DNA of 64,000 nucleotides from Terriglobia bacterium (lineage in GTDB: Bacteria > Acidobacteriota > Terriglobia > Bryobacterales > Bryobacteraceae), in the NCBI GenBank assembly GCA_020073345.1, contig JAIQFI010000005.1, forward strand, positions 1-64,000, given 5' to 3'. The translations under genes and the position numbers were made by a program. Positions within the stretch are counted from its first letter, which is position 1. Each line of letters opens with the position of its first letter. This document shows, piece after piece, positions 11,945 through 62,715 of the stretch. The notes under the pieces are model-generated. The model searched no databases. It saw only the letters and a list, made by a program, of their open reading frames with translations, and had not been told where the DNA came from.

Positions 11945-12436
11945 TCAGGGAGCGAGCGCTTTCAGAGTAGTCAGGTAGCTGACAACATCCATGATCTCTT
12001 GCGGGCTGAGCTTGCCCTGGTAGGACGGCATCAGACCCTTGGCAACGATGGTCACGTCGCTCCATTCGGATTTCAGAAAGGACTTCAGGTTCCCTTGGCT
12101 GTCCACAAGCTCCACGGTGAACATGTCCCGGTCGAGCAGCCTGCCGGTGACGACCGTGCCGTCTTTCTTGAGAGTCACGCGAACCCCCCGGTTTGCCCTG
12201 TCCACGTCCGCGTCGGGATCGAGCAGCGCGCGCTCGAGATACGCGCGTGTGGCGCGGCGCTGGCTGCCGATACCCGTGAGCTCGGGTCCCGACCTGGAGC
12301 CGGTCGCCTTCACGCGATGGCAGCTCAGGCAATCGCCCTTGCCTTCAAAAATCGCTTTACCTCTCGCGGCGTCGCCCTGAGGCTGCTGGGCAAACAGCAT
12401 GCCGCCTGTCAAAATCCCGATCGCAAGGTTTTTCAC
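11945..12436 (-). CDS. c-type cytochrome, Pirellula/Verrucomicrobium-type heme-binding domain
   Basis: A 163-residue exported monoheme protein. A short signal peptide is followed by G-D-A-A-R-G-K-A-I-F, the heme-c motif C-L-S-C-H near residue 37, GPELTGIG, a central beta region (VTGRLLDRD) and the axial-Met segment GLMPSY. This order matches the putative heme-binding domain first described from Pirellula and Verrucomicrobium. The start is GTG at 12436, whose GTGA overlaps the frame-corrected stop of the upstream gene (12433-12435), indicating translational coupling. It is a paralog of 15901-16476, which is likewise placed directly downstream of a GDTLVVD gene. It probably transfers electrons in the periplasm. 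Confidence 0.88.
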   Translation of the reverse strand: MKNLAIGILTGGMLFAQQPQGDAARGKAIFEGKGDCLSCHRVKATGSRSGPELTGIGSQRRATRAYLERALLDPDADVDRANRGVRVTLKKDGTVVTGRLLDRDMFTVELVDSQGNLKSFLKSEWSDVTIVAKGLMPSYQGKLSPQEIMDVVSYLTTLKALAP

Positions 12437-13415
12437 TTCAGGTGCGGGACGTCCTTCTCGTTTTCGTTACAGATGTACTCGGCGATTTCCTCACCCGGGG
12501 CCAGATCCCAAATGTCGCGGATCTTCCAGGGCTTGGTAAACGCGCCCGGATCCTCGATGGTGACTTCCTTCTCGATCTGCCCCATCCCGGCCGCCGGTAG
12601 CGCTGTACCACGTGCAGCATCTCGGTATGCGGGAAAACCCGCAGCCAGCTCCGGTCGTTGAATCCGGCCGTATCGACCACTAAAGTGTCCTTCTCCCACC
12701 GGCCAACGGAGTGCCCCATCCAACTCGGGTCGAGATTCTTCGGATGCGGGCGCCCATCGAGGAAAATCTGCGTGAAGCCCGGGACATTCCCTTCCCATAA
12801 GATGGCGATCACGGTGGGTGTCTGAATGACCTTGTACAGGAACGGCGAGACCAGTAAATTGTCGCCCGGGAGGCAGAAATCCGAAGGGTTCCCAGCGCCG
12901 CCGCGTGCGCGCCGCTGCTTGGTGATCTCTTCCGCCCAAGGCAGCATCTCTGGAGCGTCCACATCCGGGGCATTCCCGATCCAGACGCCGGAAAAATCGG
13001 GCTGGCCGTTTCGCAGGCGCGGCGCCGGACCCGTAGCGGAAGAAAATTTGGCTCGAGATATGAGCGAGAAATCGTCTCCTGGCGTACCCAGGTTTCCTCC
13101 CCAGGCCAGCCGGATATCGGCGCGCGCCGTTTTCGCCGCCTGAATCACCACGCCCTTCAACTCGTACCTGGGAAATGTAAACCCGATCGGTGGAACCGTG
13201 ATGTCGTAGGTCCCAGCTGGTAGCTTCGAAAGCGTGTAGTTGCCTTTGGCGACCGCAGCCGTCTTGTAGACGACCCCAGTCGTGACGTTCCTGGCTTGAA
13301 CGGGAGCTAGGACTCCGACGCCGTCCGGATCGGTCACTGTGCCTGTGAGCACGCCAGTTCCCGTTTGCGCCGAAGCAAGGCTTACGAGCCCGACAAACGC
13401 AGTCAGCAAACGCAT
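12433..13415 (-). CDS. GDTLVVD-family secreted protein with N-terminal carboxypeptidase regulatory-like domain (frameshifted)
   Basis: A signal peptide (MRLLTAFVGLVSLASAQ) precedes a carboxypeptidase-regulatory-like domain (G-V-L-T-G-T-V-T-D-P-D-G to L-P-A-G-T-Y-D, about 20-105). The uncharacterised GDTLVVD domain follows: NGQPDFSGVW near 135, the central Cys in FCLPG, DGRPHP, and WMGHSVGRWEKDTLVVDT. The start-proximal frame would read on to 12438 with a nonsense tail. Shifting one base at about 12586, in a GGG run, restores G-Q-I-E-K-E-V-T-I-E-D-P and the family ending EYICNENEKDV, stopping at 12433. That restored stop overlaps the next gene's GTG by four bases, supporting it as the native end. 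A one-base G deletion, real or technical, explains this. The best paralog is 53746-54771. Confidence 0.8.
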
Positions 13416-13447
13416 ACTTCATAGTACTGGAGTGATAGAATCCCGTC

Positions 13448-17308: not shown

Positions 17309-17704
17309 TTACTTCTCAGGAATCTGTCCAGCCGACACCGTCTCGAGTGAGCTTCCGTCGGCGAACGTGATCTTCTGCAGATAGCCATACAGCGTGCCGT
17401 CCTTCGCGCGGACGCCATCCACCGTAATCATCTGGCCTTGGGCCTTGGCGATATCGTTCTTGTTCACGCCGACCCGGCGGAACCAGGCCGGCGGACTTCC
17501 CTCGAAATGCCAGGCGTCCACACCGTGTTCGCCTTTAGCGTCCACGTAGATAGAGATGTGGGGGTTGATCCACTCGACCCGGTTGAGGGTTCCGGTCACC
17601 TGCACCTTCTTTCCCATGTCGAAAACGGCAGTGGTGGAATGGTGCGCCCACAGGGAGCTGGCCGCGATCAGCGCTATGACAATTGCAAAGATTCGGAACT
17701 TCAA
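17309..17704 (-). CDS. DUF6152 family secreted protein
   Basis: A 131-residue exported protein matching DUF6152. The signal peptide (KFRIFAIVIALIAASSLWA) ends just before His-His (A-H-H-S-T-T), then V-T-G-T-L-N-R-V-E-W-I-N-P-H, the most conserved segment, and M-I-T-V-D-G-V-R-A-K-D-G. The pattern suggests a small OB-like beta-barrel. I chose TTG at 17704 because a strong GGAGGA sits about 7 bases upstream and the signal peptide begins there; no ATG fits. It lies in an operon with two GDTLVVD genes. The molecular role is not established. The His pair at the predicted mature N-terminus is a possible metal site. Confidence 0.83.
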   Translation of the reverse strand: MKFRIFAIVIALIAASSLWAHHSTTAVFDMGKKVQVTGTLNRVEWINPHISIYVDAKGEHGVDAWHFEGSPPAWFRRVGVNKNDIAKAQGQMITVDGVRAKDGTLYGYLQKITFADGSSLETVSAGQIPEK

Positions 17705-17791: not shown

Positions 17792-18586
17792 TTACTTTCC
17801 GACCAGACGGTCGACGTCCACGTTGAACTCGTTGCACACGTATTCATGGATCTCCCAGGTGGTGCTGAGAATGTGGGTTCGCCTGAACGTGTGCGGTTTC
17901 GTGAAGGCGCCGGGATCCTCCATGGTGATCTCGGCTTCGAGATGCCCCAGATCCGGCCGCGAGTATCGTTCGATCACGTGCAGCTTCTCGGTGTGCGGCG
18001 CGCCCCGCCCGTTGAGCCAGGTCTTGTCGTTGAAGTTCACCGTATCGACCACGAGCGTGTCGCCTTGCCAGGACGCGATGGAGTCGCCCATCCAGCTCGG
18101 ATCGAGGTCTTTGTCGTGGGCGCGATTCAGTAAGAACTGCCGGTAGCTGTGGACGTTGCCTTCAAACAGCATGACGATCACTTCGGGCGACTGTACGATC
18201 TTGAAGGGGTACGGAGTGATGCGCGGTACGCCTGCGGGCAGGCATTTCGCCTCCGGATCGTCGCGGCCTTGCGTGGCCTGGCGATCCTCCATGAGCTTTT
18301 GGGCCCAGGGCTGCAAGGGCAGCGGTCCGCCCATGTTGGCGAAGTTGTAATTTCCCGATAGCCAGACGCCGGAAAGATTGGGTTTTCCATCCGACGCGCG
18401 AGGCGTGGGACCAGCAGGCGGGGGCGGCAGGTTTTCGTCCCGTACTCCATTGACGGCGATCACGCCGCCGGGTCCGCCGAGATTATTTCCCTTGGCATTT
18501 CCTTTTTCGGCGGACTGGGCGATGGTGCGCACGGGGACCAGAGACACGATCGTCGCCAACACGATCCCAGCCAGGCGGGCGCTCAT
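17792..18586 (-). CDS. GDTLVVD-family secreted protein
   Basis: A 264-residue exported protein of the uncharacterised family. The signal peptide is about 1-23, then a Gly/Asn-rich linker and P-P-P-P-A-G-P-T-P-R, DGKPNLSGVW near 68, LQPWAQKLME, central Cys in KCLPAGVPRITPYPF, WMGDSIASWQGDTLVVDT, HTEKLHVIERYSRPD, ITMEDPGAFTKP, and the ending EYVCNEFNVDVDRLVGK. ATG 18586 overlaps the stop of the upstream DUF6152 gene by four bases (ATGA), so the two are translationally coupled. This coupling, repeated at other loci and as a fusion at 60418-61554, argues that the pair act together. No enzymatic motif is recognised. Confidence 0.85.
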   Translation of the reverse strand: MSARLAGIVLATIVSLVPVRTIAQSAEKGNAKGNNLGGPGGVIAVNGVRDENLPPPPAGPTPRASDGKPNLSGVWLSGNYNFANMGGPLPLQPWAQKLMEDRQATQGRDDPEAKCLPAGVPRITPYPFKIVQSPEVIVMLFEGNVHSYRQFLLNRAHDKDLDPSWMGDSIASWQGDTLVVDTVNFNDKTWLNGRGAPHTEKLHVIERYSRPDLGHLEAEITMEDPGAFTKPHTFRRTHILSTTWEIHEYVCNEFNVDVDRLVGK

Positions 18587-18999
18587 TTGGCCGCTCCCGG
18601 GCCGCCATCGTCGGCGGACGATCCCGCAAAGACGGTCTTGCCGCCGGCCAGCGTCACCATGCGGGCATTGCCGTGAATCGAGCCGTCGGTCAGCGGCCGG
18701 GGATCCTTGGCGAGATAGCCGTCGATGGTGACCTCGTCGCCTTCCTTGAGCGAATCGCGTTTCCAGCCGCGGCGAAGCAGCGCATTCGGACTGCTGGTTT
18801 CGAAGGCATAGCGGGAGGTTTTCCCGCCGGCATCCTTGGTATCCACGTAGATATAAGCGTGCGGATTCACCCACGCGAGCTTCGCCACCACACCCTTGAT
18901 GTTGACCGGCTTGTTGGCGTCGTACTCGGCGGAGAACGAGTGGTGTCCGAAGGCTGGAATAAGAGCGATCAACAGCAGTAGAACGGTGAAAATTCTCAT
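18583..18999 (-). CDS. DUF6152 family secreted protein
   Basis: A 138-residue exported DUF6152 protein and first gene of the five-gene unit. The signal peptide MRIFTVLLLLIALIPAFG is followed at once by His-His-Ser-Phe, then AEYDANKPVNIKGVV, A-W-V-N-P-H-A-Y-I-Y-V-D, LLRRGWKRDSLKEGDEV and D-G-Y-L-A-K-D. The ribosome-binding site is AAGGAGGT, well placed before ATG 18999; an in-frame start 16 codons upstream was not chosen because it would precede that site. It diverges from the gene at 19051 with a 51-base gap. See the 17309 entry for the family. Confidence 0.86.
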   Translation of the reverse strand: MRIFTVLLLLIALIPAFGHHSFSAEYDANKPVNIKGVVAKLAWVNPHAYIYVDTKDAGGKTSRYAFETSSPNALLRRGWKRDSLKEGDEVTIDGYLAKDPRPLTDGSIHGNARMVTLAGGKTVFAGSSADDGGPGAAK

Positions 19000-25635: not shown

Positions 25636-27726
25636 ATGAAAAATCGATCACTTGGTTGTTGATCCTCGCCGCCCACGCGCCTCTTGCTCAACCCAGCTTT
25701 GCTCAAACAATTCAGCAAGCCGAAACCGGACGAGCTCTCTTCCAGGCGCGCTGCTCCAGTTGTCACGCGACGGATTTGCGCGGCGGCGAAGGCCCGCAGC
25801 TCGCCGGAACTAATTTCATCGCGGGATGGGGAACGCGCACCGCGCGTGAACTGGTCAACACCATCCGCACCAGCATGCCTCCCGCGAATCCAGGCAGCCT
25901 GGATGAGGCAGCGCCTGTAAACCTCGCGGCGTTCATCCTCGCGGCGAATGGAGCCGCTCCGAGCGATCGGGCGCTTACAGCGGCGTCGACACTCACGATT
26001 CGCTCCGTGGCCACCGGGCGCCGGCGATCGCTTTACAAGCCGGTGGGCAGCCCGCCGCGGCGTCTAGCGGACCGAAGGGCATCACCGTCACCGGTGAAGT
26101 GAAGAACTATGTTCCGGTGACCGACGCGATGCTGCGCGATCCCGATCCGGGCGACTGGCTGATGATTCGCCGCAACTACCAGGCCTGGAGCCACAGCCCT
26201 CTCACTCAGATCAACACCAACAACGTGAAGCAGCTCCAGTTGGTCTGGTCGTGGGCCATGAATGACAGCACCGCGGCGAACGAACCCACGCCCATCGTGC
26301 ACAACGGCGTGATGTTCCTGGCCAACATCGGGAACATCGTCCAGGCGCTGGACGCGCGCACCGGCGAACTGATCTGGGAAAACCGTGTCGGGCCGGATCT
26401 CTCCAACGGCCAGGGCGCCATCCGCAGCCTCGCCCTTTATCAGGACAAGGTGTACCTCGCGACCACGGACGTGCGGCTGCTGGCACTTGACGCGCGCAAT
26501 GGGAGGATCGTCTGGGAAACGCGCATCGCCGATCCGTCAAAGAGTACGGCAACACCAGCGGACCGCTGATCGTCCAAGGCAAGGTCATCCAAGGCATGGG
26601 AGGTTGCGATCGCTACAAGGAAACCGGCTGCTTCATCAGCGCCTACGACGCGCAAACCGGCAAGCAGCTTTGGAAATTCGAAACCGTCGCGCGCGAGGGA
26701 ACTCCCGGGGGCGACACCTGGGGCAAGCTGACGAACCTGCTACGGGCTGGCGGCGATACCTGGATCACCGGCAGTTACGATCCCGTGCTCGATCTGGTTT
26801 ACTGGGGCGTCGCGCAGGCCAAGCCGTGGATGCGCGCCATCCGCAACACCAATGGCAACGCGCTCTACACCAGCTCGACGCTGGCGCTCAGGCCAGGCGA
26901 TGGATCGCTGGCGTGGTATTTCCAGCACGTTCCCGGCGAATCGCTGGACCTCGACAGTGTCTATGAGCGGGTGCTGGTCGATTCCGCCGGGCAGAGTCTC
27001 GTGTTTACCATCGGCAAGGACGGCATCCTGTGGAAGCTCGACCGCAAGACCGGCAAGTTTCTCGACTACAAGGAAACCGTCTATCAGAACGTCTTCGACA
27101 GTATCGATAAGAAAACCGGCGAGGTTCACTAACGCAACGACATTGTCGAGCAGAGCCCGGAAACATGGGTGTCGTCGTGTCCTTCCACCGAAGGCGGGCA
27201 CAACTGGCAGGCCATGAGTTATCACCCGGGTACTGCTCAGCTCATCATTCCTCTCAGCCAGACTTGCATGGAGATGTTCGGGCGCAAGACGGATTTTCAG
27301 GAAGGCGCAGGCGGCACGTCGGCCAACCGGCGCTTCTTCGAGATGCCCGGGTCGGGCGGCAACGTCGGTAAGCTGGCTGCGTATGACGTGAGCACGATGA
27401 AGGAAGTCTGGAAGGTGACGCAGCGCGCTCCGTTTCTTACGGCAGTGCTGTCGACTGGCGGCGGCGTGGCCTTCGTGGGCGATCTGGATCGCGTATTCCA
27501 CGCGGTTGACGTGAAAACTGGTGCCGAATTGTGGCGGACACGCCTACCCACCTCGGTGCAGGGCTTTCCGGTATCGTTTACCGCAGGCGGCAAGCAGTAC
27601 ATCGCGGTCACAACGGGATTGAATGGCGGCAGCCCGCGGCAGGTGCCGGCCGTCGTCGCTCCGGATGTTCATCATCCCGCGAACGGGAACGCGCTGTACG
27701 TCTTCGCGCTGCCGGAAACAAGGTAG
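25636..27726 (+). pseudogene. cytochrome c-PQQ-dependent dehydrogenase, degraded
   Basis: The remains of a quinoprotein dehydrogenase with an N-terminal cytochrome c domain, spread over three frames. ATG 25636 is followed by five A; a sixth would give M-K-K-S-I-T-W-L-L-I-L and an intact signal peptide into heme motif C-S-S-C-H. Near 26023-26025 a GGG run needs one more G to join the cytochrome to G-E-V-K-N-Y-V-P-V-T. Near 26539-26541 one more A joins I-A-D-P-S-K to E-Y-G-N-T-S-G. At 27130-27132 an in-frame TAA replaces what is probably Tyr before R-N-D-I. The rest, to [10 protein letters not shown], is a readable beta-propeller. Two intact PQQ genes lie at 45197 and 47861. Three deletions plus a nonsense codon suggest true decay, though the indels are all in short runs. 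Confidence 0.82.
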
Positions 27727-30787: not shown

Positions 30788-31567
30788 ATGACCATTCGGT
30801 TTATCGGTTCGATTTCGGCGGCGGCTGCCATGACGGCGCTTCTCTCACTGGCTCCGGCGGCGGGCCAATCCGGCGTGCCGAAAGCCGGCGACATACCGCG
30901 CCTCGCCGACGGGAAACCTGACTTTAGCGGAGTCTGGGACCACCCGCGCGTCGGCGACGTCACCAAGGACGGGAAAGGGTGCGGCAGCCAGAACAAAGGA
31001 TGCACCCAGAAGGGAAACGGCGAGTTGTCGTTCACCGCCGCTGGCCTGGCTCAATGGAAAGACGAAAACCGATTTGATTACTCCGCCTACTGCCAGCCGT
31101 GGGGTTACACGCGAGCGACGCAGACGGAATATCCGGTGGAATTCCTCCAGACTCCCAAACGTCTGGCCATACTATGGGAATCGAATAACGTGTTTCATGT
31201 GGTCCCCACGGACGGGCGCGAGCGTCCCAAGGACGTTGAGCCGAGCTGGATGGGAACCTCGGTTGGCAAGTTCGATGGAGACACGCTCATCATCGATACC
31301 GCCGGCTTCAACGGCAAGACCTGGATCGATACAGCGGAGCATCCCTCGAGTGACGCGTTGCACGTGGTCGAGCGCATCCATTACATCGATCCCCAGCATC
31401 TTTCCTACGAGGTGACCTGGGAGGATCCCAAGAGTTATACCAAGCCGATCACCAACACGCGGGTCTTCACGCGCATGCCTCCCGGTACCGAGCTTATGGA
31501 ATGGTGGTGCATGGAGAACAACAAGGATCTTCTGGGTGGCCACCTGGTGAGCAAGGGCCCGCGCTAG
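30788..31567 (+). CDS. GDTLVVD-family secreted protein
   Basis: A 259-residue exported member of the uncharacterised family. A signal peptide ends near A-P-A-A-G-Q, then ADGKPDFSGVWDHP near 39, an extra Cys pair in K-G-C-G-S-Q-N-K-G-C-T, central Cys in A-Y-C-Q-P-W-G, PTDGRER (Glu where the family has His), WMGTSVGKFDGDTLIIDTAG, SSDALHVVERIH, TWEDPKSYTKP and ending L-M-E-W-W-C-M-E-N-N. It has its own promoter-like element and ends exactly one base before the convergent DUF6152 gene's stop. Function unknown. Confidence 0.82.
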   Translation: MTIRFIGSISAAAAMTALLSLAPAAGQSGVPKAGDIPRLADGKPDFSGVWDHPRVGDVTKDGKGCGSQNKGCTQKGNGELSFTAAGLAQWKDENRFDYSAYCQPWGYTRATQTEYPVEFLQTPKRLAILWESNNVFHVVPTDGRERPKDVEPSWMGTSVGKFDGDTLIIDTAGFNGKTWIDTAEHPSSDALHVVERIHYIDPQHLSYEVTWEDPKSYTKPITNTRVFTRMPPGTELMEWWCMENNKDLLGGHLVSKGPR

Positions 31568-31966
31568 TTACTGTTTGTTCTCACCGGGACCCGAGCCGCC
31601 GGAGAATAGCTCACGGCCATCGGGCAGCGTGATCGAGCGGCCGTTCGCCACTGCCTCGCCGCTCTTGGCACGAAAGCCCGAAATATCGACCTCGGTGCCG
31701 TTCGGAACCGCATCCTTCTTCCAGCCCAGCCGGAACAGCGCGTTCGGGGGACCCAGCTCGAAGTGCCAGTTGACCACCTTGCCGTCGGCTCCTTTCACGT
31801 CGACATAAATCCATGCGTGCGGGTTCACGAACTCGACCTTGGTCACGGTTCCGTGCACCTTCACCGGCTGGTTGACGTCGAACTCCGCCGCGAAGGCATG
31901 ATGCGCCGCGAGTTGCGCCACCGCCAGCGTTAACGTAATCGCGACTAACGCAAGCATCTTACGCAT
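31568..31966 (-). CDS. DUF6152 family secreted protein
   Basis: A 132-residue exported DUF6152 protein. The signal peptide (RKMLALVAITLTLAVAQLAA) ends directly before His-His-Ala-Phe, then AEFDVNQPVKVHGTV, V-E-F-V-N-P-H-A-W-I-Y-V-D-V-K, LFRLGWKKD and I-S-G-F-R-A-K-S-G-E. It is the last gene of a five-gene minus-strand unit (35054 to 31568), 3 bases after the stop of a GDTLVVD gene. Together with the other loci, this shows the recurrent pairing of the two families. Confidence 0.87.
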   Translation of the reverse strand: MRKMLALVAITLTLAVAQLAAHHAFAAEFDVNQPVKVHGTVTKVEFVNPHAWIYVDVKGADGKVVNWHFELGPPNALFRLGWKKDAVPNGTEVDISGFRAKSGEAVANGRSITLPDGRELFSGGSGPGENKQ

Positions 31967-31969
31967 GAA

Positions 31970-32845
31970 TTACCTCCCCCGCTCCGGCGGCTTGCCGAAA
32001 ATGTTCACCAGCGTCTGGCTCCCCTCGGCGCAGGCGAATTCCAGCGACTCGACTCCCTTGGGAACCCTGGTGAAGTAGCCGGCAACTTTCCAGGGCTTAG
32101 TGAACAGCGCGGGATCGTCGATGGTGACCTCGTAATCGATGGTGTTGGCATCGGCGATGGTGAACCGCTCCACCGTATGCAACTGATCGCTCAAGTAAGG
32201 TATCTCGCGCGAGTATGCGATTCGTCCATTGAAGTTGGTGGTGTCGACGATCAGCGTGTTGCCGTCCCAATGACCGATGGAATCGCCCATGAACAGCCGG
32301 ATGTCCGGGCCCACGTGGGGGCGGCCGTCGAGATGGATCACCCGGCTGGTGTGGTTGTAGTCGTACAGAATCACGACCGCTCCGGGAGGCTGCAGGAACT
32401 GATAGGGATTGTTGCCGTCCTCGCCCTGGAATAATCCGGGCAGCGCGCAACGCGCATTCAGCTCCACGTGACGAAGGTCAGCCGCGGGATTCATATGCAG
32501 CAGAAAGTCGCGGCGCTTGGCGTCCTCCTCGGGTTTCCACGGAAGGTTCCGGTCGGCCGGATCCACGATGCCGGTGCGCCGCTGCTGGCGAGCTTGCCCG
32601 GAGCGCAACACCGTCCCGCCTTGTCCGAAGATTCCCGGATAGGGCCCCAGGCCGTCGCCCCGATTCGAAACCGACAAGGGATTCTTCCCGCTGGGATCGA
32701 TCGGATTCTCAGGCGGCTTGGCTTCCAGGCCGACCACTCCATTGCGAGTGTACATGCCTTGCAAATCGGGCTGGGTTTGACCACGAGCCGCCACGACGGC
32801 TGCGAACAAGACAGCGGCCACTCGGGCACTACTTGAAAGGAGCAT
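31970..32845 (-). CDS. GDTLVVD-family secreted protein
   Basis: A 291-residue exported member. The signal peptide LLSSSARVAAVLFAAVVAARG is followed by a degenerate N-motif (TQPDLQGMY), a long Pro/Asn-rich segment, central Cys in N-A-R-C-A-L-P-G-L-F, HLDGRPHVG, FMGDSIGHWDGNTLIVDTTN, LSDQLHTVERFT, VTIDDPALFTKPW, and the ending L-E-F-A-C-A-E-G. ATG 32845 overlaps the end of the upstream paralog by 17 bases, so the two are probably translated together. It is the most divergent copy in this operon, suggesting specialised rather than redundant roles. Confidence 0.8.
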   Translation of the reverse strand: MLLSSSARVAAVLFAAVVAARGQTQPDLQGMYTRNGVVGLEAKPPENPIDPSGKNPLSVSNRGDGLGPYPGIFGQGGTVLRSGQARQQRRTGIVDPADRNLPWKPEEDAKRRDFLLHMNPAADLRHVELNARCALPGLFQGEDGNNPYQFLQPPGAVVILYDYNHTSRVIHLDGRPHVGPDIRLFMGDSIGHWDGNTLIVDTTNFNGRIAYSREIPYLSDQLHTVERFTIADANTIDYEVTIDDPALFTKPWKVAGYFTRVPKGVESLEFACAEGSQTLVNIFGKPPERGR

Positions 32846-33581
32846 TCTTGAACTTCTCCTCCTGCTGGTAGAAGACGCACTCGTATTCCAGCAGCTTGGC
32901 ATTCTTGTCTATGCGGCGATACAGCGGCATGCCCATCTTCCACGGCCGCGTGAAGACCTTGGGATCCTCTACGGTGGCCTCGTAGGAAATGTGATCCGGA
33001 TTGGTGAGCGTGTAGCGTTCCACCACGTGGAGCGCATCGCTGTGGAAGTTGCCGGCGTGATCGAACCAGGTCTGATCGTTGAAGCTGTTGACGTCCACCA
33101 CCAGAGTGTCGCCATCCCAACGGCCGCACGAATCACCCATCCAGGTGTCCGGTAACCCATCAGGATGTGGGCTGCCGTCCATCGGGATATTTCGAAGAGC
33201 GTGCGCGAACTCATACATGATCGCGATGTCTTTGGGAGTTTGCGCAATCTGGAATGGAAACGGCATGTAAGTAGCGCGCGGCACGCCCGGCAGGAAGCAG
33301 TTGGCTTCGGTCTGATCTGCGGTCGCCCGATTAGCGAAGTTCACTTTCTTCTTGGCCGCCGCTGACGGCTGATACGGAATCGCATTGCCTTCGACGACGC
33401 CTTGGCCCGGAGGCATGCCCAATTGCCCGGTGTGATCCTGAATATCCCAGGCCGCAGTGTTCAAGGCCTGCCAGATACCGTTGAGGTCGGGTTTCCCATC
33501 CGCGGTCCGGCGAACCGTCTGCGGAACCGCCACCGTCGATAGCAGCACTCCGCAGACGAGGATCGATCGGACTCGGTTCAT
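32829..33581 (-). CDS. GDTLVVD-family secreted protein
   Basis: A 250-residue exported member. The signal peptide MNRVRSILVCGVLLSTVAVP is followed by RTADGKPDLNGIWQ near 25, central Cys in N-C-F-L-P-G-V-P-R, P-M-D-G-S-P-H-P, TWMGDSCGRWDGDTLVVDVN, HSDALHVVERYT, ATVEDPKVFTRPW and L-E-Y-E-C-V-F-Y near the end. A third Cys lies inside the G-D-S-C-G block, a position that is Ile or Val elsewhere. It lies 12 bases downstream of the cupin gene and overlaps the next paralog. No activity can be assigned. Confidence 0.83.
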   Translation of the reverse strand: MNRVRSILVCGVLLSTVAVPQTVRRTADGKPDLNGIWQALNTAAWDIQDHTGQLGMPPGQGVVEGNAIPYQPSAAAKKKVNFANRATADQTEANCFLPGVPRATYMPFPFQIAQTPKDIAIMYEFAHALRNIPMDGSPHPDGLPDTWMGDSCGRWDGDTLVVDVNSFNDQTWFDHAGNFHSDALHVVERYTLTNPDHISYEATVEDPKVFTRPWKMGMPLYRRIDKNAKLLEYECVFYQQEEKFKNAPFK

Positions 33582-34067: not shown

Positions 34068-35054
34068 TCACTTCTTGTCGAACAGTTTGTCGTAGTCCTT
34101 GGATGTTTCGCATACGAACTCGTCCACTCTTTCAAGCTCCGGCCGGAAGGGAAGAGTTCGGGTCGGCAAAACCCAGGGTTGGGCGAAGACGTTGGGATCT
34201 TCCACCGTGACGTCGTATTGGAGCGAGCCGTTCTCGATGCGCCGGAACCGCTCGACCACGTGCAGGGCTTCCGTGTGCATATAGCCGCTGACCTCGGTCT
34301 TGTCGTTAAAGCCGATGGTGTCCACCACCAGCGTGTCTCCTTCCCAGTGTGCGACCGAATCGCCCATCCAGGTTGGATCCGGGTCCACCGGATGCGCGCG
34401 GCCGTCGGTAGGAATGAAGCGGATCGCATTGGGGTACTCGAACACCATCAGAATGAGTTTCGGGGTTTGAACGATCTGGAACGGGTACGGAGTCACGAAG
34501 GATTGCGGCACGCCCAGCGGCTTGCAATCGGTGCCCAGCGTAGTGGTGCCGCGAACGTCGTTGGGCCCCCGGACGATCTTGAATTTTTCAGCGCCGGGTT
34601 TCAGGACTGGCGGCTCCGCGCCACGCACGCCGGCGAAGCCGTACACCCCATTCAGATCGATCGCAGGCGCTTCCGACGCCGACGCCGTGGCTTTGGCGCC
34701 GGATACAGTCACTGTCACCGCGCTGGTCAAAGTTGCATTGTTCGGTCCGGTGACGGTCAGCGTGTAGCTGGTGGTAGTGGTTGGAAAGACCTGACGGCTG
34801 CCGCGGGCGGTCACGCGGCCGATACCCTGGTCGATCGTGGTGGCGTTGGGATTTTCCGCCGCCCAGACCAATGTGACGGGCTGTCCCGGCTGGATCGAGG
34901 CCGGTTGGGCGGTGAAAGTGACGATCCGGGCAGGCGGCACTATTCGTGCAGCACCACCTCTTCCGGTTGGAGCGGGCGCCGGAGTCTGGGCGGCCGCGGA
35001 CCAAGTCAACACGCCCGCAAGCAGCAGGAGGCTGTAGTTCATTGGACTTCGCAT
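34068..35054 (-). CDS. GDTLVVD-family secreted protein with Ig-like domain
   Basis: A 328-residue exported protein. After the signal peptide (Y-S-L-L-L-L-A-G-V-L-T-W-S-A-A) comes a bacterial Ig-like beta-sandwich at about 42-115: ASIQPGQPVTLVW, TTTTSYTLTVTGPNNAT and V-T-V-T-V-S-G. The GDTLVVD domain follows with I-D-L-N-G-V-Y-G-F, central Cys in D-C-K-P-L-G-V-P, PTDGRAHP, TWMGDSVAHWEGDTLVVDT, HTEALHVVERFR, VTVEDPNVFAQPW and E-F-V-C-E-T-S. The start may be ATG 35054 or four codons later. It is the first gene of the unit. The extra domain probably serves adhesion or positioning. Confidence 0.82.
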   Translation of the reverse strand: MRSPMNYSLLLLAGVLTWSAAAQTPAPAPTGRGGAARIVPPARIVTFTAQPASIQPGQPVTLVWAAENPNATTIDQGIGRVTARGSRQVFPTTTTSYTLTVTGPNNATLTSAVTVTVSGAKATASASEAPAIDLNGVYGFAGVRGAEPPVLKPGAEKFKIVRGPNDVRGTTTLGTDCKPLGVPQSFVTPYPFQIVQTPKLILMVFEYPNAIRFIPTDGRAHPVDPDPTWMGDSVAHWEGDTLVVDTIGFNDKTEVSGYMHTEALHVVERFRRIENGSLQYDVTVEDPNVFAQPWVLPTRTLPFRPELERVDEFVCETSKDYDKLFDKK

Positions 35055-52916: not shown

Positions 52917-53714
52917 ATGAAACGTCGTCTTATTGGGATCCTTGCAGCATCTCTCTGGGTTTATATTCCTGGCACGGCCCAGGACTTTAACGGGAAGCAG
53001 GTGGCGGCCGCACTCACGCGGAAAAACATCCCGCCCGCACCGCGTTTGCCCGACGGCCATCCCGACCTGGGCAACGCGAAAGGGTCGTGGGAACCTCCTG
53101 GCGTGGGGGACATGGCCGGCACCGGAGGCGGCTTCGCCGGCAGCGCGCAGCCCGAGAAAAAGATCGATGTCCCGTTTCTGCCCTGGGCTAAGACGATTTA
53201 CGATCAACGCAACGCCAATATCACCAAGGACGATCCCGAGGGGTTCTGTCTGCCGCCGGGAATCCCGCGCATGTACGCGACCTCGTTCCCGTTTCAGATT
53301 TATCAGATGCCCAACCGCATCCTGTTCGTGTTCGAAGGCGGCGCGCACATGTGGAGAGTGGTCTACATGGATGGGCGGAAACATACACCGCCAGACAAGC
53401 TGAATCCGACCTATCTGGGTGAGGGGATCGGCCGATGGGAGGGAGACACGCTGGTGGTGGACGTCACCGGATTGAACGACCGATCCTGGATCGACGCGGC
53501 GGGGCATCCACACACCGAACAGCTCCACGTCGTCGAGCGCTTCACGCGCGTGAATGAGCTGATCATGCGCTACGAGGCAACCATCGATGACCCGGGGGCT
53601 TATTCCAAGCAGTGGACTACCAGCTGGAACATGCTGTTCCACCCCGGCATGGAACCGCTCGAGTACATCTGTCAGGAGAATAATGCGGACATGAAACATC
53701 TGGTCGGCAAGTAG
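52917..53714 (+). CDS. GDTLVVD-family secreted protein
   Basis: A 265-residue exported member. A signal peptide (KRRLIGILAASLWVYIPGTA) is followed by LPDGHPDLGNAKGSW near 44, a Gly-rich stretch, PFLPWAKTIYDQR, central Cys in G-F-C-L-P-P-G-I-P-R, MDGRKHTP, YLGEGIGRWEGDTLVVDVTG, HTEQLHVVERFT, ATIDDPGAYSKQW, and the tail E-Y-I-C-Q-E-N-N-A-D-M-K-H. It has an excellent AGGAGGAGG ribosome-binding site. It stands alone, divergent from the tannase gene by 70 bases and convergent with another paralog; a hairpin lies between the two 3' ends. Confidence 0.85.
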   Translation: MKRRLIGILAASLWVYIPGTAQDFNGKQVAAALTRKNIPPAPRLPDGHPDLGNAKGSWEPPGVGDMAGTGGGFAGSAQPEKKIDVPFLPWAKTIYDQRNANITKDDPEGFCLPPGIPRMYATSFPFQIYQMPNRILFVFEGGAHMWRVVYMDGRKHTPPDKLNPTYLGEGIGRWEGDTLVVDVTGLNDRSWIDAAGHPHTEQLHVVERFTRVNELIMRYEATIDDPGAYSKQWTTSWNMLFHPGMEPLEYICQENNADMKHLVGK

Positions 53715-53745: not shown

Positions 53746-54771
53746 TCACTTGCCGCGGTAGTGTTTCACGTCGTTGTTGTTCTCATTGCAGATAAATTCC
53801 ATGATCTCTTCGCCAGGGGGTGCGAGAGTCGCGGTGAAGGTTCGCTTCCAAGGGCCGGTGAACGCCTCGGAATCCTCCATGGTGATTTCGACCTCGATAT
53901 GCCCATAGTCGGGGCGGTGGATGCGTTCGACGGTGTGCAGTTTTTCCGTATGTGGAATGCCGGTGAGCGAGAGCCAGGCCTTGTCGTTGAAACCGGTGGT
54001 GTCGACCACCAACGTGTCGCCGTCCCAGCGTCCTATCGAGTGTCCCTGCCAGGTAGGATTCCAGTCCGCGGGGTGGGGGCGTCCATCCATGAAGATCTGT
54101 CGCAGGCCGGGGGTATCCGACTCGGTGATCACCACAATGAGGGAAGGCGTCTGCACGAACTTGTACGGGAACGCCCGCGTGATCGAAGATGCATTGGCCG
54201 GCAAGCAGAATCCGCCGGGGTAATCTTTCGAGTCATTCTCCATGCGCTGGCGAAGGAGCTCCGCGGCCCACGGCTGTAGCGGAGGCGGAGGCGTTTCCGG
54301 ATTGTACACGTTGATCCAGATGCCGGAAAGATCGGGCTTGCCCTCAGGGGTGCGCGGCGTGGAACCGGTGGGCACGGCGGCGCGGTCGCGGAAATCATTC
54401 AGCAGGAGGATGGGATCGTCTCCCAGCGTCCCCAGGTTGGATCCCCACGGCAGGCGGATGTTCAGGCGGCGCGACTCGCCAGCTCGAACGATGACCCCCG
54501 ATTGGGTAAAGGATCCGTACTGACAGCAAGGCATGGCGACGGCGAGATCGTAAGTTCCCGCGGGCAAGGCGAGGGTATATTCGCCCTTGGGCGAGCCAGG
54601 ACCGCGCACCACGGCGTGTGTAGCGGAGTTGGTGGCCTGAATCACGGCGTCCTTGACGATGCCCCCGTCAGGATCGCTGATGGTGCCCGTGATCGACGCC
54701 GGTTGCGCGAGGGCGACAGTTTGGATCGCAGCCGTCAAGAAGATCTGTGCGTACTTTACGCCGCGCGCCAT
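53746..54771 (-). CDS. GDTLVVD-family secreted protein with carboxypeptidase regulatory-like domain
   Basis: A 341-residue exported protein and the intact counterpart of the frameshifted 12433-13415. The signal peptide is followed by a carboxypeptidase-regulatory-like sandwich at about 25-105 (S-I-T-G-T-I-S-D-P-D-G to L-P-A-G-T-Y-D-L-A). The GDTLVVD domain has EGKPDLSGIW near 142, central Cys in F-C-L-P-A-N, DGRPHPADWNPTW, the block QGHSIGRWDGDTLVVDT, HTEKLHTVERIHRPDYG, ITMEDSEAFTGPW and the ending E-F-I-C-N-E-N-N-N-D-V. The regulatory-like domain is the type also found in the TonB receptor and may position the protein at the outer membrane or on a carbohydrate. Confidence 0.86.
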   Translation of the reverse strand: MARGVKYAQIFLTAAIQTVALAQPASITGTISDPDGGIVKDAVIQATNSATHAVVRGPGSPKGEYTLALPAGTYDLAVAMPCCQYGSFTQSGVIVRAGESRRLNIRLPWGSNLGTLGDDPILLLNDFRDRAAVPTGSTPRTPEGKPDLSGIWINVYNPETPPPPLQPWAAELLRQRMENDSKDYPGGFCLPANASSITRAFPYKFVQTPSLIVVITESDTPGLRQIFMDGRPHPADWNPTWQGHSIGRWDGDTLVVDTTGFNDKAWLSLTGIPHTEKLHTVERIHRPDYGHIEVEITMEDSEAFTGPWKRTFTATLAPPGEEIMEFICNENNNDVKHYRGK

Positions 54772-58925: not shown

Positions 58926-59961
58926 TTAACGCGTTCCGGGAAGCGGCCCGCCGGCCTCGCCACGGACGACTTTCGTATCCTGGCCCTGCGCTTCCAACTG
59001 CCGGGCTGCGGTGAGCGCGTCGAGCATCATATAGTTGCCTTCGTGGCAGGCGTATTCGTAGAGTCGATATTCGCGGTCCATCTTGAACGGATACCGGAGC
59101 GTGTACGGCGTGGTCCACACGTTCGGATCGTTGATAGTGGCCTCCCAGATCAGCTCATCGGGGGCCGTGCGGGTGAAGCGCTCCACGATCTTCGCGGCAT
59201 CGGTGTAGCGCCCGCCCGATCCCGATTCCGGCCTCAGGTTGGTGGTCTCGACCACCAGCGTGTTTCCTTCCCAGTGGCCGACCGAATTGCCCATGTACAT
59301 CTTGATGTCCTTGCCCACATGCTTGCGGCCGTCAATAGGAATCACGCGCTGCTCATGCACCATTTCGCTGCGGATCACGACATATCCGGGCGACTGGATG
59401 ATATCGTTGCCGAAGTTGTAGATGGTGTACAGCATGGTGGAGGGGAATCCGCGTGTGATGCAGCGGCTGTAGTAATCGAAATCTTCCCAAGAGTCGACCT
59501 TGTCTGGAAAGTGCTGCCCAGGCCCGAGCCCGCCGCGTTCCGACGCAACGGCCTTCTGCGCCTGCGGCGTCATCGGCGGGATCCTTCCATCCGGCGGATC
59601 GACCACGACGGATGTCTGCTTGGTTCTCCGGCCGCCCTCGGTCCAATACAGCGGCGGATTGATGGTGATCTGATTCTCGTACTGCTTCTGGACGTTCGCG
59701 GACTGCTGCGCCGCTTGCCGCTCAGTCTGCGCGAACTCCTCGTCGGAAAGAACCTCTTTGTCCTTCACGCCCCCCGGCGCGCTGCATGGGGATGTTGAAC
59801 TGGGCCGGCCAGTTTCCCTGCAGGTCGGGATCGCCCCAGGGAGTCTTGGGAGGCGTGTAGGCTTTCTTAGTTGCTTTGGGAGCGGCAGATGGGGTTTGCG
59901 CGGTTAGGATGAGCGATGCGGCCAGGACTCCAGCCGCGAGTGGGAGAATGCGACAAAGCAT
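58926..59961 (-). CDS. GDTLVVD-family secreted protein (frameshifted near the N-terminus)
   Basis: The N-terminal frame starts at ATG 59961 after an AGGAGG site with a signal peptide (L-P-L-A-A-G-V-L-A-A-S-L-I) and T-P-W-G-D-P-D-L-Q-G-N-W. After M-Q-R-A-G-G a run of six G (plus strand C at 59770-59775) shifts the reading frame; five would continue as V-K-D-K-E-V-L-S-D-E. The remaining 270 codons are intact: S-R-C-I-T-R-G central Cys, IDGRKHVGKD, YMGNSVGHWEGNTLVVETTN, ATINDPNVWTTPY, and E-Y-A-C-H-E-G. This copy is divergent, with an extended tail beyond the second Cys. Restored length is about 344 residues. One extra G is either an error or a true mutation. Confidence 0.78.
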
Positions 59962-60044
59962 GGGCAACCTCCTGCAGACGAATAAAGTGTATCAGGCAGG
60001 AGTCCCTTGCGCTCGGAGCATCAGTAGCGTTATATCTTGGACTC

Positions 60045-60425
60045 ATGAAACGAGCGCTACACCTAGCTTGTGTCGCGATTTGCCTAGGGGTTTTCGCGCC
60101 GGGATTCGCCCAGCAGGGCCACCCGCTGACCGGCACCTGGTCCGGCGACTGGGGCGCGACCTCGACCCAGCGCCACCAGATCACTTTCGTGATGAACTGG
60201 GACGGCAAGAACATTACGGGCCTGATCAATCCGGGTCCCGATTCCATCCCGATCGCCAGCGTTTTCGTGGATGTGACTAATTGGACCGTGCGGATCGAGG
60301 CGAACGGGAAGGACCATATCACCGCCGAGGGCAAGCTGGAGGATCTCGGTTCCTACCACCGAACTATCAAAGGTACTTGGACGCAGGGTTCCACTAAAGG
60401 CGACTTCAGGATCACGCGTGACTAG
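60045..60425 (+). CDS. small secreted beta-rich protein
   Basis: A 126-residue exported protein with a signal peptide (KRALHLACVAICLGVFAPGFA). The mature part begins H-P-L-T-G-T-W-S-G-D-W and is strand-rich (I-T-F-V-M-N-W-D-G-K-N-I, W-T-V-R-I-E-A-N-G, I-K-G-T-W-T-Q-G). Paired T-W and W-T motifs at both ends suggest a small closed barrel of lipocalin-like type, but this is only a resemblance. It is the first gene of a tight five-gene unit, overlapping the DUF6152-GDTLVVD fusion by 8 bases. A longer in-frame start lies in the promoter region and was not used. Confidence 0.78.
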   Translation: MKRALHLACVAICLGVFAPGFAQQGHPLTGTWSGDWGATSTQRHQITFVMNWDGKNITGLINPGPDSIPIASVFVDVTNWTVRIEANGKDHITAEGKLEDLGSYHRTIKGTWTQGSTKGDFRITRD

Positions 60426-61554
60426 CCGCCTCACGAATCGGTTATGGGTCGCGGTCTTCGCCGCGGCGACTGTGTTCGCACAGAGCTCTGCGACCTACGA
60501 CAGCTCGCGGACGATCAAGCTTACGGGCGTGGTCATCAAAGTCGAGTGGGCGAATCCGCATGCGTTTTTCTTTGTGAACGTGCGCGACGCAGCCGGCACG
60601 ATTACGAACTGGGCTCTGGAGTTCGGGAATCCGCTGGATCTGGAGAAGGACGGCTGGACGCGAAATTCCTTGCGCATCGGCGATTCCGTCAATGTGGAAG
60701 GAATCCCAGCGCGGGACCCGAAGAGACAAGCGTTCGCCAAATCGGTGACGCTCGCTAAAACCGGCAAGAAGCTTTTCGTAGCTGCGCCTAAGAAACCTGC
60801 TACTGCTGCCGTTCGCGAACCTACTCCTCGCTGGCCCGATGGTCAGGTTCGCCTGGGACCGCCTGCGGGGAAGAAGGGATATTGGGGCGCACCGAGCGCC
60901 TCTGTACTCGTGGAAACCACGGCCGCTAAAATCCAGATGAACGACGAAGGGCTCCTGCGGAACCTGGCGGACGTGGATCGCGTGGCGCCGTTCCAGCCCT
61001 GGGCGAAGGCCGTGTACGAGTATCGCCAGCGCAGCCTTCTGAAAGACGATCCTCTGACGCGCTGTCTTCCGCCCGGCGGACCGCGTCAGTTCCAGATGCC
61101 GCACGGGTTTCAGTTCGTCGAACAGCGCGATTTGGGGCGCATTTTGTTGCTCCTGGGCGGCGGCGACCGGAACTGGCGTGTGATCTATACGGACGGCCGC
61201 TCGCAAGGTCAGGCGGATGAGGTGGTCCGCAGCTACTACGGCAATTCGGTGGGGCGCTGGGATAAGGATACCCTGGTAGTAGATGTGATCGGCTTCAACG
61301 AGCATTTCTGGATTACCAACGGCGGGCTTCCTCACACCGAAGCCTTGCATCTGACGGAACGTTTCACCAGGCCGGATCTCGGCACGCTGAAGTACCAGGT
61401 GACCGTTGATGATCCACGGACGTATACGCGGCCGTGGACCGGCGGCTGGACCATTCCGTGGGTCCCGAACGAAGAGATTCAGGAGTATTTTTGCGAGGAG
61501 AACGTGGAATCGACACTGTCTATAAACGTGTCCGGTAAGGAGAATTACAAATGA
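60418..61554 (+). CDS. DUF6152-GDTLVVD fusion protein, secreted
   Basis: A 378-residue exported protein joining the two recurrent families. Residues about 25-120 are a DUF6152 domain: YDSSRTIKLTGVVIKVEW, A-N-P-H-A-F-F-F-V-N, KDGWTRNSLRIGD and V-E-G-I-P-A-R-D-P. The His-His start of stand-alone DUF6152 proteins is replaced by S-S-A-T. A short linker (K-K-P-A-T-A-A-V) leads to the GDTLVVD part: R-W-P-D-G-Q-V-R, central Cys in R-C-L-P-P-G-G-P-R, TDGRSQ, YYGNSVGRWDKDTLVVDVIG, HTEALHLTERFTRPDLG, VTVDDPRTYTRPW and E-Y-F-C-E-E-N. The fusion is strong evidence that the two families work together. It overlaps genes on both sides by 8 and 4 bases. Confidence 0.88.
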   Translation: MTSRLTNRLWVAVFAAATVFAQSSATYDSSRTIKLTGVVIKVEWANPHAFFFVNVRDAAGTITNWALEFGNPLDLEKDGWTRNSLRIGDSVNVEGIPARDPKRQAFAKSVTLAKTGKKLFVAAPKKPATAAVREPTPRWPDGQVRLGPPAGKKGYWGAPSASVLVETTAAKIQMNDEGLLRNLADVDRVAPFQPWAKAVYEYRQRSLLKDDPLTRCLPPGGPRQFQMPHGFQFVEQRDLGRILLLLGGGDRNWRVIYTDGRSQGQADEVVRSYYGNSVGRWDKDTLVVDVIGFNEHFWITNGGLPHTEALHLTERFTRPDLGTLKYQVTVDDPRTYTRPWTGGWTIPWVPNEEIQEYFCEENVESTLSINVSGKENYK

Positions 61555-61946
61555 GAGTCAACCGAATCGTTTCGCTGATGGGGCTCGGCCTGCTGGTGCT
61601 GGCGGTGAAACCCGCGGCGGCGCATCACTCGTTTGAAGCCGAATACGACGGCAACAAGACCGCGAATCTGACCGGGTACGTCACCAAGGTGGATTGGGTG
61701 AATCCGCACGCCTACATCTTCTTCAACGTGAAAGACGAGAGCGGCGCGACCAAGGAGCTGCGGTTCGAGCTGGGGCCGCCCTACGCCCTCACGCGCGGCG
61801 GCTGGAAGCGCGACACCGTGAAGATCGGCGACAAGATCAGCCTGGAGGGCGCGGCTGTCGCCAAAGATCCCAAGAACGCCTGGGTGGGAGCGATGCAGAC
61901 AACGACTCTGATCCTGGAAAACGGCCAGAAGCTGCCCACGAGGTAA
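61551..61946 (+). CDS. DUF6152 family secreted protein
   Basis: A 131-residue exported DUF6152 protein in the same unit as the fusion. A signal peptide (N-R-I-V-S-L-M-G-L-G-L-L-V-L-A-V) ends at P-A-A-A directly before His-His-Ser-Phe, then AEYDGNKTANLTGYVTKVDW, V-N-P-H-A-Y-I-F-F-N, L-T-R-G-G-W-K-R-D and A-V-A-K-D-P-K-N-A-W. The A-A-A site puts cleavage cleanly before the His pair. ATG 61551 overlaps the preceding stop by four bases. Only one base separates its stop from the next GDTLVVD gene, so they are certainly co-transcribed. Confidence 0.88.
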   Translation: MRVNRIVSLMGLGLLVLAVKPAAAHHSFEAEYDGNKTANLTGYVTKVDWVNPHAYIFFNVKDESGATKELRFELGPPYALTRGGWKRDTVKIGDKISLEGAAVAKDPKNAWVGAMQTTTLILENGQKLPTR

Positions 61947-61947
61947 A

Positions 61948-62715
61948 TTGACGGTGAGAATCGCGGCTGCGTTGGTAGCGGTATCGTCGCTGGCGGTGGT
62001 GTCCTTTGCACAAGGTAAACAAGGAAAACAGGCGCAAGCCAAGCAGGTAAATACTGCGCCGCCGGAGCCTGCTCCGCGCTGGCCCGACGGCCACTTGAAC
62101 CTGGGGTCAGTACCAGGCAAGAAGGGATATTGGGAAGTCCGGCCAGGCCTGGGAGGGTTTCCGCGCGCGAACGACGTCCCCTTTCAGCCGTGGGCCAAGG
62201 CGGTTTACGAATACCGGACCGCGACGTTCTCGCAAGACTCGCCGCTGGTGGACTGCAAGGCGTCGCCCGGGCCGTCGTTTCTCAACGCGCCCGGATTCGA
62301 GATCGTGGATGTCCCCGAGCTTAAGAGTATTTTCATCCTCAATATGGCCGGGCCTCATTCCTGGCGTGTGATTTACCTGGACGGCCGGATGCATCCTCAG
62401 GGCGAGGACGTCAGGCCAACTTTCCTGGGCCACTCGATCGGGCACTGGGAAGGGGACACGCTGGTGATCGATTCGGTGGGCTTCAACGAAAAAATGTGGG
62501 CCGTGGGAGCGTTTCCGAATACCTCGCAGCTCCACCTGGTGGAACGCATCTCGCGCCCGAACCTGAAATCGTTGTCATACGAGGTGACGGTGGACGATCC
62601 CGGCGCGTACACGAAATCCTGGTCCGGCAAATGGACTATCACCGAGACTACGGCTTCGAAGTGGATCGCTGACGGCGAAATGTTCGAATACATTTGCCAG
62701 GACGCGGGCAGGTAA
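61948..62715 (+). CDS. GDTLVVD-family secreted protein
   Basis: A 255-residue exported member with a signal peptide (R-I-A-A-A-L-V-A-V-S-S-L-A-V-V) and a Lys/Gln-rich linker (G-K-Q-G-K-Q-A-Q-A-K). It has A-P-R-W-P-D-G-H-L-N-L-G, the P-G-K-K-G-Y-W segment shared with the fusion protein (residues near 155 there), central Cys in D-C-K-A-S-P-G, LDGRMHPQ, FLGHSIGHWEGDTLVIDSVG, N-T-S-Q-L-H-L-V-E-R, VTVDDPGAYTKSW and E-Y-I-C-Q-D. It looks like a sister of the fusion's C-terminal half. The start is TTG 61948 with GAGGTAA just upstream, or GTG 61954. It ends 3 bases before the amidohydrolase gene. Confidence 0.84.
   Translation: MTVRIAAALVAVSSLAVVSFAQGKQGKQAQAKQVNTAPPEPAPRWPDGHLNLGSVPGKKGYWEVRPGLGGFPRANDVPFQPWAKAVYEYRTATFSQDSPLVDCKASPGPSFLNAPGFEIVDVPELKSIFILNMAGPHSWRVIYLDGRMHPQGEDVRPTFLGHSIGHWEGDTLVIDSVGFNEKMWAVGAFPNTSQLHLVERISRPNLKSLSYEVTVDDPGAYTKSWSGKWTITETTASKWIADGEMFEYICQDAGR

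What the first reader, a model, noticed from the sequence alone, without database searches (positions are those of the whole stretch)
12433..62715. Twelve paralogs of an undescribed secreted family (GDTLVVD family) in 64 kb
Twelve genes share one uncharacterised architecture: export signal, D-G-x-P-D-x-x-G-x-W, a central Cys, D-G-R-x-H, a block G-x-S-(I/V)-G-x-W-x-G-D-T-L-V-V-D, a (H/S)-(T/S)-(E/D)-x-L-H-V-V-E-R segment, an E/D-D-P acidic turn, and a second Cys near the end. The order is constant although the rest diverges strongly, which indicates diversified rather than redundant roles. Such local amplification next to PQQ enzymes, esterases and cytochromes suggests a substrate-specific periplasmic or surface system. 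I recognise no named family.
Basis: partly seen in the sequence, partly recalled or inferred. Interest (0 to 1): 0.85.

Follow-up and report, generated by a model that had tools for sequence, protein, structure and literature searches.

The report
Hyperexpanded unnamed secreted calycin-like protein family
Twelve related secreted proteins in this stretch belong to a very large, still unnamed protein family that some soil bacteria carry in over a hundred versions, nearly always together with one other small secreted protein of unknown function, which hints at an undescribed system outside the inner membrane.

Summary
A profile finds twelve paralogs in the window, two of them split between frames. 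No Pfam model matches any of 133 members; NCBIfam and PDB sequences give nothing for the shared domain. The amplification is not local: the genome carries at least 157 copies, and large sets recur in other acidobacterial families and in records titled Gammaproteobacteria and Caulobacteraceae. The paralogs are old and under purifying selection.

AlphaFold gives a confident beta fold (pLDDT 92.6); its weak best PDB matches are mostly calycins. Two cysteines are near-invariant.

The strongest new result is an almost obligate partner, DUF6152: within 500 bases for 51 of 73 loci here (random mean 3.9), and present in 23 of 23 sampled genomes with the family against 1 of 175 without. DUF6152 is predicted to be an exported OB fold with a conserved N-terminal His-His. 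Some loci add DUF6644 membrane pairs and cytochromes. Linkage to PQQ enzymes is at chance level. Biochemical function remains inferred.

The parts
12438..13418 (-). GDTLVVD family member with N-terminal CarboxypepD_reg domain; C-terminal part lies in another frame
   Evidence: Profile 142 bits; C-terminal part 45 bits in frame 12436-13614; PF13620
16483..17295 (-). GDTLVVD family member
   Evidence: Profile hit; signal by eye
17309..17704 (-). DUF6152 partner
   Evidence: PF19649 E 2.2e-20
17792..18586 (-). GDTLVVD family member
   Evidence: Profile hit
18583..18999 (-). DUF6152 partner, overlapping the next gene by 4 bases
   Evidence: PF19649 E 5.9e-29
30788..31567 (+). GDTLVVD family member (start codon uncertain)
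   Evidence: Profile hit; orthologue-like L080:8658-9620
31568..31966 (-). DUF6152 partner; its mature part is the first sequence of the DUF6152 model
   Evidence: PF19649 E 1.6e-29; model
31970..32845 (-). GDTLVVD family member
   Evidence: Profile hit
32829..33581 (-). GDTLVVD family member
   Evidence: Profile hit
34068..35042 (-). GDTLVVD family member with a longer N-terminal part
   Evidence: Profile hit
52917..53714 (+). GDTLVVD family member; its mature part is the first sequence of the structure model
   Evidence: Profile 360 bits; model
53746..54771 (-). GDTLVVD family member with N-terminal CarboxypepD_reg domain
58926..59768 (-). GDTLVVD family member; signal peptide and first part in another frame (59722-59961)
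60045..60425 (+). Small exported protein with a GTW motif, recurrent neighbour of the family (called P3 here); no Pfam or NCBIfam match
   Evidence: 17 of 18 frames of this kind in the held loci lie within 260 bases of, or overlap, a family frame
60418..61554 (+). Natural fusion: DUF6152 N-terminal, GDTLVVD C-terminal
   Evidence: PF19649 E 1.1e-24; profile 218 bits
61551..61946 (+). DUF6152 partner
   Evidence: PF19649 E 7e-25
61948..62715 (+). GDTLVVD family member
   Evidence: Profile hit

Best explanation
The GDTLVVD proteins are exported, disulfide-locked beta proteins of calycin type. Each offers a pocket for one small molecule, or one class of them, outside the inner membrane. They work with DUF6152, a second exported protein with a predicted OB fold and a conserved histidine site (mature N-terminal His-His, plus Asp9, the NPH histidine and Glu49) that probably binds a metal. 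Some loci add a pair of DUF6644 membrane proteins and in some cases a c-type cytochrome, so the module most likely captures or turns over small molecules in a periplasmic redox process. Copy number grew to 100 or more because each copy serves a different ligand. Shown here: the family, its scale, its age, selection on it, and the DUF6152 linkage. Predicted: both folds. Inferred: the disulfide, the pocket, the metal, the redox role and the ligand diversity.
For: Two cysteines in 133 of 133 rows; 157 of 199 domains have exactly two. Model pLDDT 92.6, pTM 0.91, mainly beta. By my reading 36 of the 50 Foldseek rows shown are FABP, retinol-binding, nitrophorin or streptavidin chains, probability up to 0.97. 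A GxW motif at residues 34-36 (that it marks calycins is recalled). DUF6152 within 500 bases for 51 of 73 loci, random mean 3.9. Co-occurrence 23 of 23 versus 1 of 175 genomes (Fisher 3.5e-29, which ignores kinship). Copy numbers rank together over 16 genomes that I chose, rho 0.98. Natural fusions of the two. DUF6152 has His-His, Ala before it in 89 of 93, in 93 of 97 copies and in 17 of 17 further ones; all 93 keep the NPH-type histidine, while of the four without His-His, all fusions, three lack it. DUF6644 pairs in 13 loci, with a CxxCH cytochrome in the same stretch in 5 of them. Purifying selection on orthologue-like pairs.
Against: No Foldseek match reached E 0.001 and the TM-score by query length was at most 0.33 for the rows shown, so the calycin assignment is weak. 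Polar residues are conserved across paralogs (E185 98%, R186 93%, R125 94%, D203 99%), more than a pure binding scaffold needs, which may point to an enzyme. No metal, ligand or redox activity was tested. Of 14 DUF6644 matches in this genome only 6 lie within 1 kb of DUF6152 (random mean 0.67) and only one within 1 kb of a family member. There are about two family members per DUF6152 here (157 to 73), and the nine-gene array has none. Ten fusions keep both histidine sites, so fusion alone does not cause the loss.
Confidence: 0.42

Rival explanations
1. The proteins are enzymes built on a calycin-like barrel, as phenolic acid decarboxylases or allene oxide cyclases are (recalled). Glu185, Arg125 and Asp203 would be catalytic, and the copies would differ in substrate.
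For: Polar residues conserved across paralogs only about 34% identical. E185, R125 and D203 fall on the same alternating face as the hydrophobic residues of their own strands, suggesting a buried position. Some neighbours are catabolic: a tannase in the window, a cluster represented by a LigB dioxygenase in 4 of 80 loci. Acyl-CoA thioesterase and dehydratase chains appear in the Foldseek list, at probability 0.28 or less.
Against: No match to any enzyme family over the domain. D203 is lost in two Sphingobium copies (by eye). The catabolic neighbours were not tested against chance.
Confidence: 0.27
2. Nutrient capture paired with TonB-type outer-membrane transporters, comparable to SusD with SusC in Bacteroidetes (recalled).
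For: A receptor cluster whose representative is OMP_b-brl_4 lies within 6 kb of the family in 16 of 80 fetched loci. TonB-type receptors are annotated in two Sphingomonad plasmid loci and one matches Pfam in L107.
Against: In the whole genome the receptors are not enriched near the family: 2 of 45 within 1 kb, random mean 5.7; 9 of 45 within 3 kb, random mean 8.5 (coordinates cover the barrel domain only, which biases the short distances low).
Confidence: 0.1
3. Surface, matrix or structural proteins, or antigen-like decoys, diversified by contact with other organisms.
For: Very high copy number, export and divergence.
Against: dN/dS 0.03 to 0.23 between orthologue-like pairs shows conservation, not rapid change, and a histidine-bearing partner is unexpected for this role.
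Confidence: 0.08
4. Accessory proteins of PQQ dehydrogenases and cytochromes.
For: PQQ genes in the window and about 66 loci in the genome; a PQQ cluster in 9 of 80 fetched loci.
Against: PQQ genes lie near the family no more than chance: 8 of 66 within 1 kb, random mean 6.3; 11 of 66 within 3 kb, random mean 11.1.
Confidence: 0.05

Closest known systems
Calycin-type proteins (FABP, cellular retinol-binding proteins, nitrophorin, streptavidin)
   Same: Predicted antiparallel beta fold, N-terminal GxW motif, best though weak Foldseek matches
   Different: No PDB sequence similarity, an extra N-terminal region before the main strands, a conserved Cys pair (residues 89 and 230), more conserved polar residues; no match at E 0.001
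TIGR03435 / DUF3738 (Soli_TIGR03435)
   Same: Also a paralog-rich family of unknown function, found near the family in 7 of 80 loci; NCBIfam classes its model as 'paralog'
   Different: No scanned family member matched TIGR03435 or DUF3738
SusD-type nutrient-binding proteins (recalled)
   Same: Secreted, many copies per genome, presumed ligand diversity
   Different: Different predicted fold; no transporter pairing detected in the genome-wide test
DUF6152 (PF19649)
   Same: Named family of unknown function to which the partner genes belong
   Different: It is the partner, not this family, although natural fusions join the two

Membership tests
Any Pfam or NCBIfam family | Match to a model over the shared domain | tested here: not met
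   Pfam: 0 of 133 members at E 0.01. NCBIfam: none over the domain in the twelve window members and one fused relative
Calycin superfamily | Up-and-down antiparallel beta barrel | tested here: inconclusive
   Confident, mainly beta model; calycins lead the Foldseek list but at E 0.04 or worse and TM-score by query of at most 0.33; no coordinates to check barrel closure
Calycin superfamily | N-terminal G-x-W motif | tested here: met
   G34 and W36 each in 92% of 133 rows, on a short strand at 34-37; that the motif marks calycins is recalled
Calycin superfamily | Conserved Arg packing on the motif Trp | not testable with these tools
   No model coordinates were returned
SusD-like partner of a TonB transporter | Gene pairing with a TonB-type receptor | tested here: not met
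   2 of 45 receptors within 1 kb, random mean 5.7; barrel-domain coordinates only, one genome
TIGR03435 / DUF3738 | Match to the family model | tested here: not met
   0 of 133 members match DUF3738; none of the twelve window members matches TIGR03435
DUF6152 (PF19649), for the partner genes | Score above the curated cut-off | tested here: met
   Five window genes, 73 to 102.3 bits against a cut-off of 27, one of them the fusion
Histidine-brace copper proteins (for DUF6152; recalled) | N-terminal His of the mature protein as metal ligand, with a second His | not testable with these tools
   His-His follows a signal-like residue in 93 of 97 and all of 17 further copies; cleavage and metal binding were not tested

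The most novel reading that the evidence does not exclude
GDTLVVD plus DUF6152 is a new periplasmic metalloenzyme system: DUF6152 is an OB-fold copper protein with an N-terminal histidine brace, the GDTLVVD barrel presents the substrate, and the DUF6644 pair with a c-type cytochrome carries electrons. Over a hundred barrels per genome would then give one cell a very wide set of substrates for oxidation outside the cytoplasm.
Probability: 0.12. Interest if true: 0.95.

Novelty: new variant of a known kind. Interest (0 to 1): 0.77.

Why it matters
With at least 157 copies of roughly 0.75 kb, the family fills about 2% of this genome (my estimate), yet no Pfam or NCBIfam model matched it. Ten of the twelve genomes that I reached through named records have 58 to 132 copies in 2.6 to 6.1 Mb (these were picked because they hold good matches). 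A protein type used this heavily by soil bacteria probably matters to how they feed or survive. The near-perfect pairing with DUF6152 gives a specific handle: two unknown families become one testable system, and genomes with few copies give a small version to work on.

Tried and rejected
PQQ association: tested genome-wide, at chance. TonB/SusD-like pairing: not enriched genome-wide. Homology with the small P3 partner: the profile comparison aligned only 13 columns around GxW, probability 10%. PDB by sequence: no match. Literature: the terms DUF6152, GDTLVVD, DUF6644, TIGR03435 and GDTLVVET each returned 0 papers, and two word combinations on expanded acidobacterial families also returned 0. 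Two other searches gave listings only, with nothing on this family visible in titles and abstract starts. The Solibacter paralog paper PMC3174227 was seen as a listing, abstract start and passages; the passages show no such family, and its tables and supplements were not read. PMC5900883 was seen in listings only. The library holds open-licence papers only, so absence from print is not shown.

Counting notes. The 157 is a floor, since scoring stopped at 150 of 265 candidates. Scoring in the 198-genome searches stopped at 14 and 23 per genome, which affects counts, and could hide a weak match in principle. That both searches drew the same 198 genomes I infer from the handles shown. In the adjacency test I merged 100 PQQ matches by hand to 66 loci and kept 45 of 57 receptor matches, dropping fragments and weak ones; contig lengths were partly guessed and sum to 4.85 Mb, so random means are if anything too high. 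Fusions count as adjacent there. In one search the script counted L039 as keeping the NPH histidine because of a later AH; the aligned check gives three of four lost. The 97 DUF6152 copies are those of 100 hits that passed a score and coverage cut. The 16 genomes of the rank test were picked by me; their family counts mix (two profiles) and stop at 150 for the largest.
Full report
What is there. Ten open frames in the window carry the GDTLVVD-type block. A profile from these ten finds two more genes; the other frames it reports are pieces of two of the twelve. Ten are clean genes. At 12438-13418 the end of the domain is in another frame, and at 58926-59768 the start is in another frame. I describe both as split and did not join them. 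Extra domains: CarboxypepD_reg in two members and DUF6152 at the N-terminus of a third.

Known families. None of 133 members from the window and from named genome records matches any of 24,736 Pfam models at E 0.01. NCBIfam gave no match over the domain for the twelve window members and one fused relative. A profile of the 133 matches no PDB sequence even at E 10.

Scale. The window lies in a 6.23 Mb genome of 98 contigs (97.5% complete). Two searches together give 157 distinct places, a floor because scoring stopped at 150 of 265 candidates. There is a nine-gene same-strand array on contig C60 and a seven-gene one on C23. Within the genus, counts run from 3 to beyond the scoring cap. With the larger profile: 150 of 150 scored in this genome, 143 and 148 of 150 in two congeners, but 8 and 4 in two others; 123 of 150 and 94 of 148 in two genomes of other families of the phylum; 22 and 49 in two genomes of one further genus, the first a single contig. 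In an even sample of 198 genomes of the phylum, 23 have the family. Names are the record titles and at least one title looks wrong. Plasmid records show the family in 8 records, all Sphingomonadales genera.

Age and selection. Seventy full-length copies from this genome have a median pairwise identity of 0.34, and 44 of the 70 are closest to a copy in another genome; some of those genomes are congeners. Members of the C60 array are 45 to 68% identical to each other, while three of them have orthologue-like copies 85 to 88% identical in another Bryobacteraceae MAG (L015). The window cluster at 30.7-33.6 kb (family +, DUF6152 -, family -, family -) has the same order in L080. Ten orthologue-like family pairs give dN/dS of 0.03 to 0.23, with dS saturated in some. 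These are old, maintained genes.

Fold. The mature part of 52917-53714, with the 133-row alignment, gives pLDDT 92.6 and pTM 0.91, with eight main strands after an N-terminal region that holds helices. Foldseek against the PDB has no match at E 0.001. The 50 rows shown run from E 0.04 to 0.2; by my reading 36 are cellular retinol-binding proteins, FABPs, nitrophorins or streptavidins, and the rest include acyl-CoA thioesterases and unrelated chains. TM-scores by query length are at most 0.33. I read this as calycin-like, weakly supported. Both cysteines are near-invariant, and 157 of 199 domains have exactly two, so a disulfide is likely. E185, R125 and D203 fall on the same alternating face as the hydrophobic residues of their own strands, which suggests buried charges; without coordinates this cannot be measured.

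Partner. Five window genes score as DUF6152, one of them the fusion. The genome has 73 DUF6152 loci. Forty-six of 73 lie within 300 bases of a family member on the same strand, and 51 of 73 within 500 bases against a random mean of 3.9 and a maximum of 10 in 200 trials. In the 198 phylum genomes, DUF6152 is found in 24 and the family in 23; all 23 are shared and only G203 has DUF6152 alone. The positives span seven family codes, though the genomes are related to one another. Over 16 genomes that I chose the copy numbers rank together with rho 0.98. All five Sphingomonad plasmid regions that I opened have a DUF6152 beside a family gene. In G211, which has one family match among 14 scored of 23 candidates, the DUF6152 gene lies in the same stretch, about 400 bases away and on the other strand.

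DUF6152 itself. The model (pLDDT 87.8, from 68 rows) shows OB-type order of strands and helix, and its top Foldseek matches are PriB, SSB and tRNA-synthetase OB domains (E from 1.4e-3, none at 1e-3). His-His directly follows a signal-like residue, Ala in 89 of 93, in 93 of 97 copies, and His-His is present in 17 of 17 further copies. H1, H2, D9, N27, H29 and E49 are at least 90% conserved and P28 is invariant in the 68 rows. All 93 copies with His-His keep the NPH-type histidine. The four copies without His-His are all fusions to the family, and three of the four also lack that histidine; ten other fusions keep both. Joint loss fits a shared metal site, though four cases are few and may not be independent. 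That N-terminal histidines form copper sites in other proteins is recalled.

Wider locus. Pairs of DUF6644 membrane proteins occur in 13 held loci of several lineages (L042, L049, L055, L061, L095, L101, L102, L104-L109). Of 29 DUF6644 hits in the held loci 19 lie within 600 bases of DUF6152; most loci were fetched for the family, so this is not an unbiased rate. Genome-wide, 6 of 14 DUF6644 matches lie within 1 kb of DUF6152, random mean 0.67, but only one within 1 kb of a family member. A small cytochrome with CxxCH sits in the same stretch in 5 of the 13 loci (L042, L101, L102, L106, L109); five further hits lie in loci without DUF6644. One matches cytochrome c' just below the cut-off and another matches nothing in Pfam. 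A small exported GTW protein (P3; 60045-60425 here) lies within 260 bases of, or overlaps, a family frame in 17 of 18 cases.

Not linked. PQQ genes: 8 of 66 within 1 kb, random 6.3. OMP_b-brl_4 receptors: 2 of 45, random 5.7.

Reading. I commit to exported calycin-type pocket proteins acting with a probable metal-binding OB-fold partner in a periplasmic small-molecule or redox process, expanded for ligand variety. The linkage and the scale are shown; the folds are predicted; ligand, metal, redox role and mechanism are inferred. An enzymatic role of the barrel itself is the main rival.

Noticed in passing
window 45197-46963, 47861-49669 and G000 genome-wide: The genome holds about 66 PQQ-dehydrogenase-type loci (100 raw matches merged by hand), a second striking expansion; the two window genes score below the cut-off of the NCBIfam group acido-empty-quinoprotein.
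   Followed up: partly
window 26156-27603, strand +: PQQ-type match broken into three frames, perhaps a decayed gene or assembly errors.
   Followed up: no
window 12436-13614 and 58926-59961, strand -: Two family members are split between frames; pseudogenes or assembly errors.
   Followed up: partly
L084:1334-3157 and L085:1855-3759: Family members with a long N-terminal part (over 300 residues before the domain) that matches no Pfam family.
   Followed up: no
L082:700-2376 and L081:1304-2773: Two family domains in tandem within a single open frame.
   Followed up: no
L020:5667-7403: Open frame holding a glyoxalase domain and a family domain.
   Followed up: no
L096:3979-5043: Family member with a weak C-terminal DUF3471 match, below that family's cut-off.
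   Followed up: no
L022 and L078 (CALQCC020000032.1, CALQCC020000053.1): The MAG titled Bordetella parapertussis has 91 family copies, and several match coordinates equal those of G014, a congener of the window genome; the title looks wrong.
   Followed up: partly
L110:5702-6690 (G203): The only genome of the 198 with DUF6152 but no family match; its DUF6152 is followed by DUF6644.
   Followed up: partly
L013:600-2210 and others: DUF3738/TIGR03435, another paralog-rich family of unknown function, lies near family members in 7 of 80 loci.
   Followed up: no
window 29682-30725 and 46956-47777: Two metallo-beta-lactamase-fold proteins, the first related, far below cut-off, to quinoprotein-relay zinc hydrolase models.
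   Followed up: no
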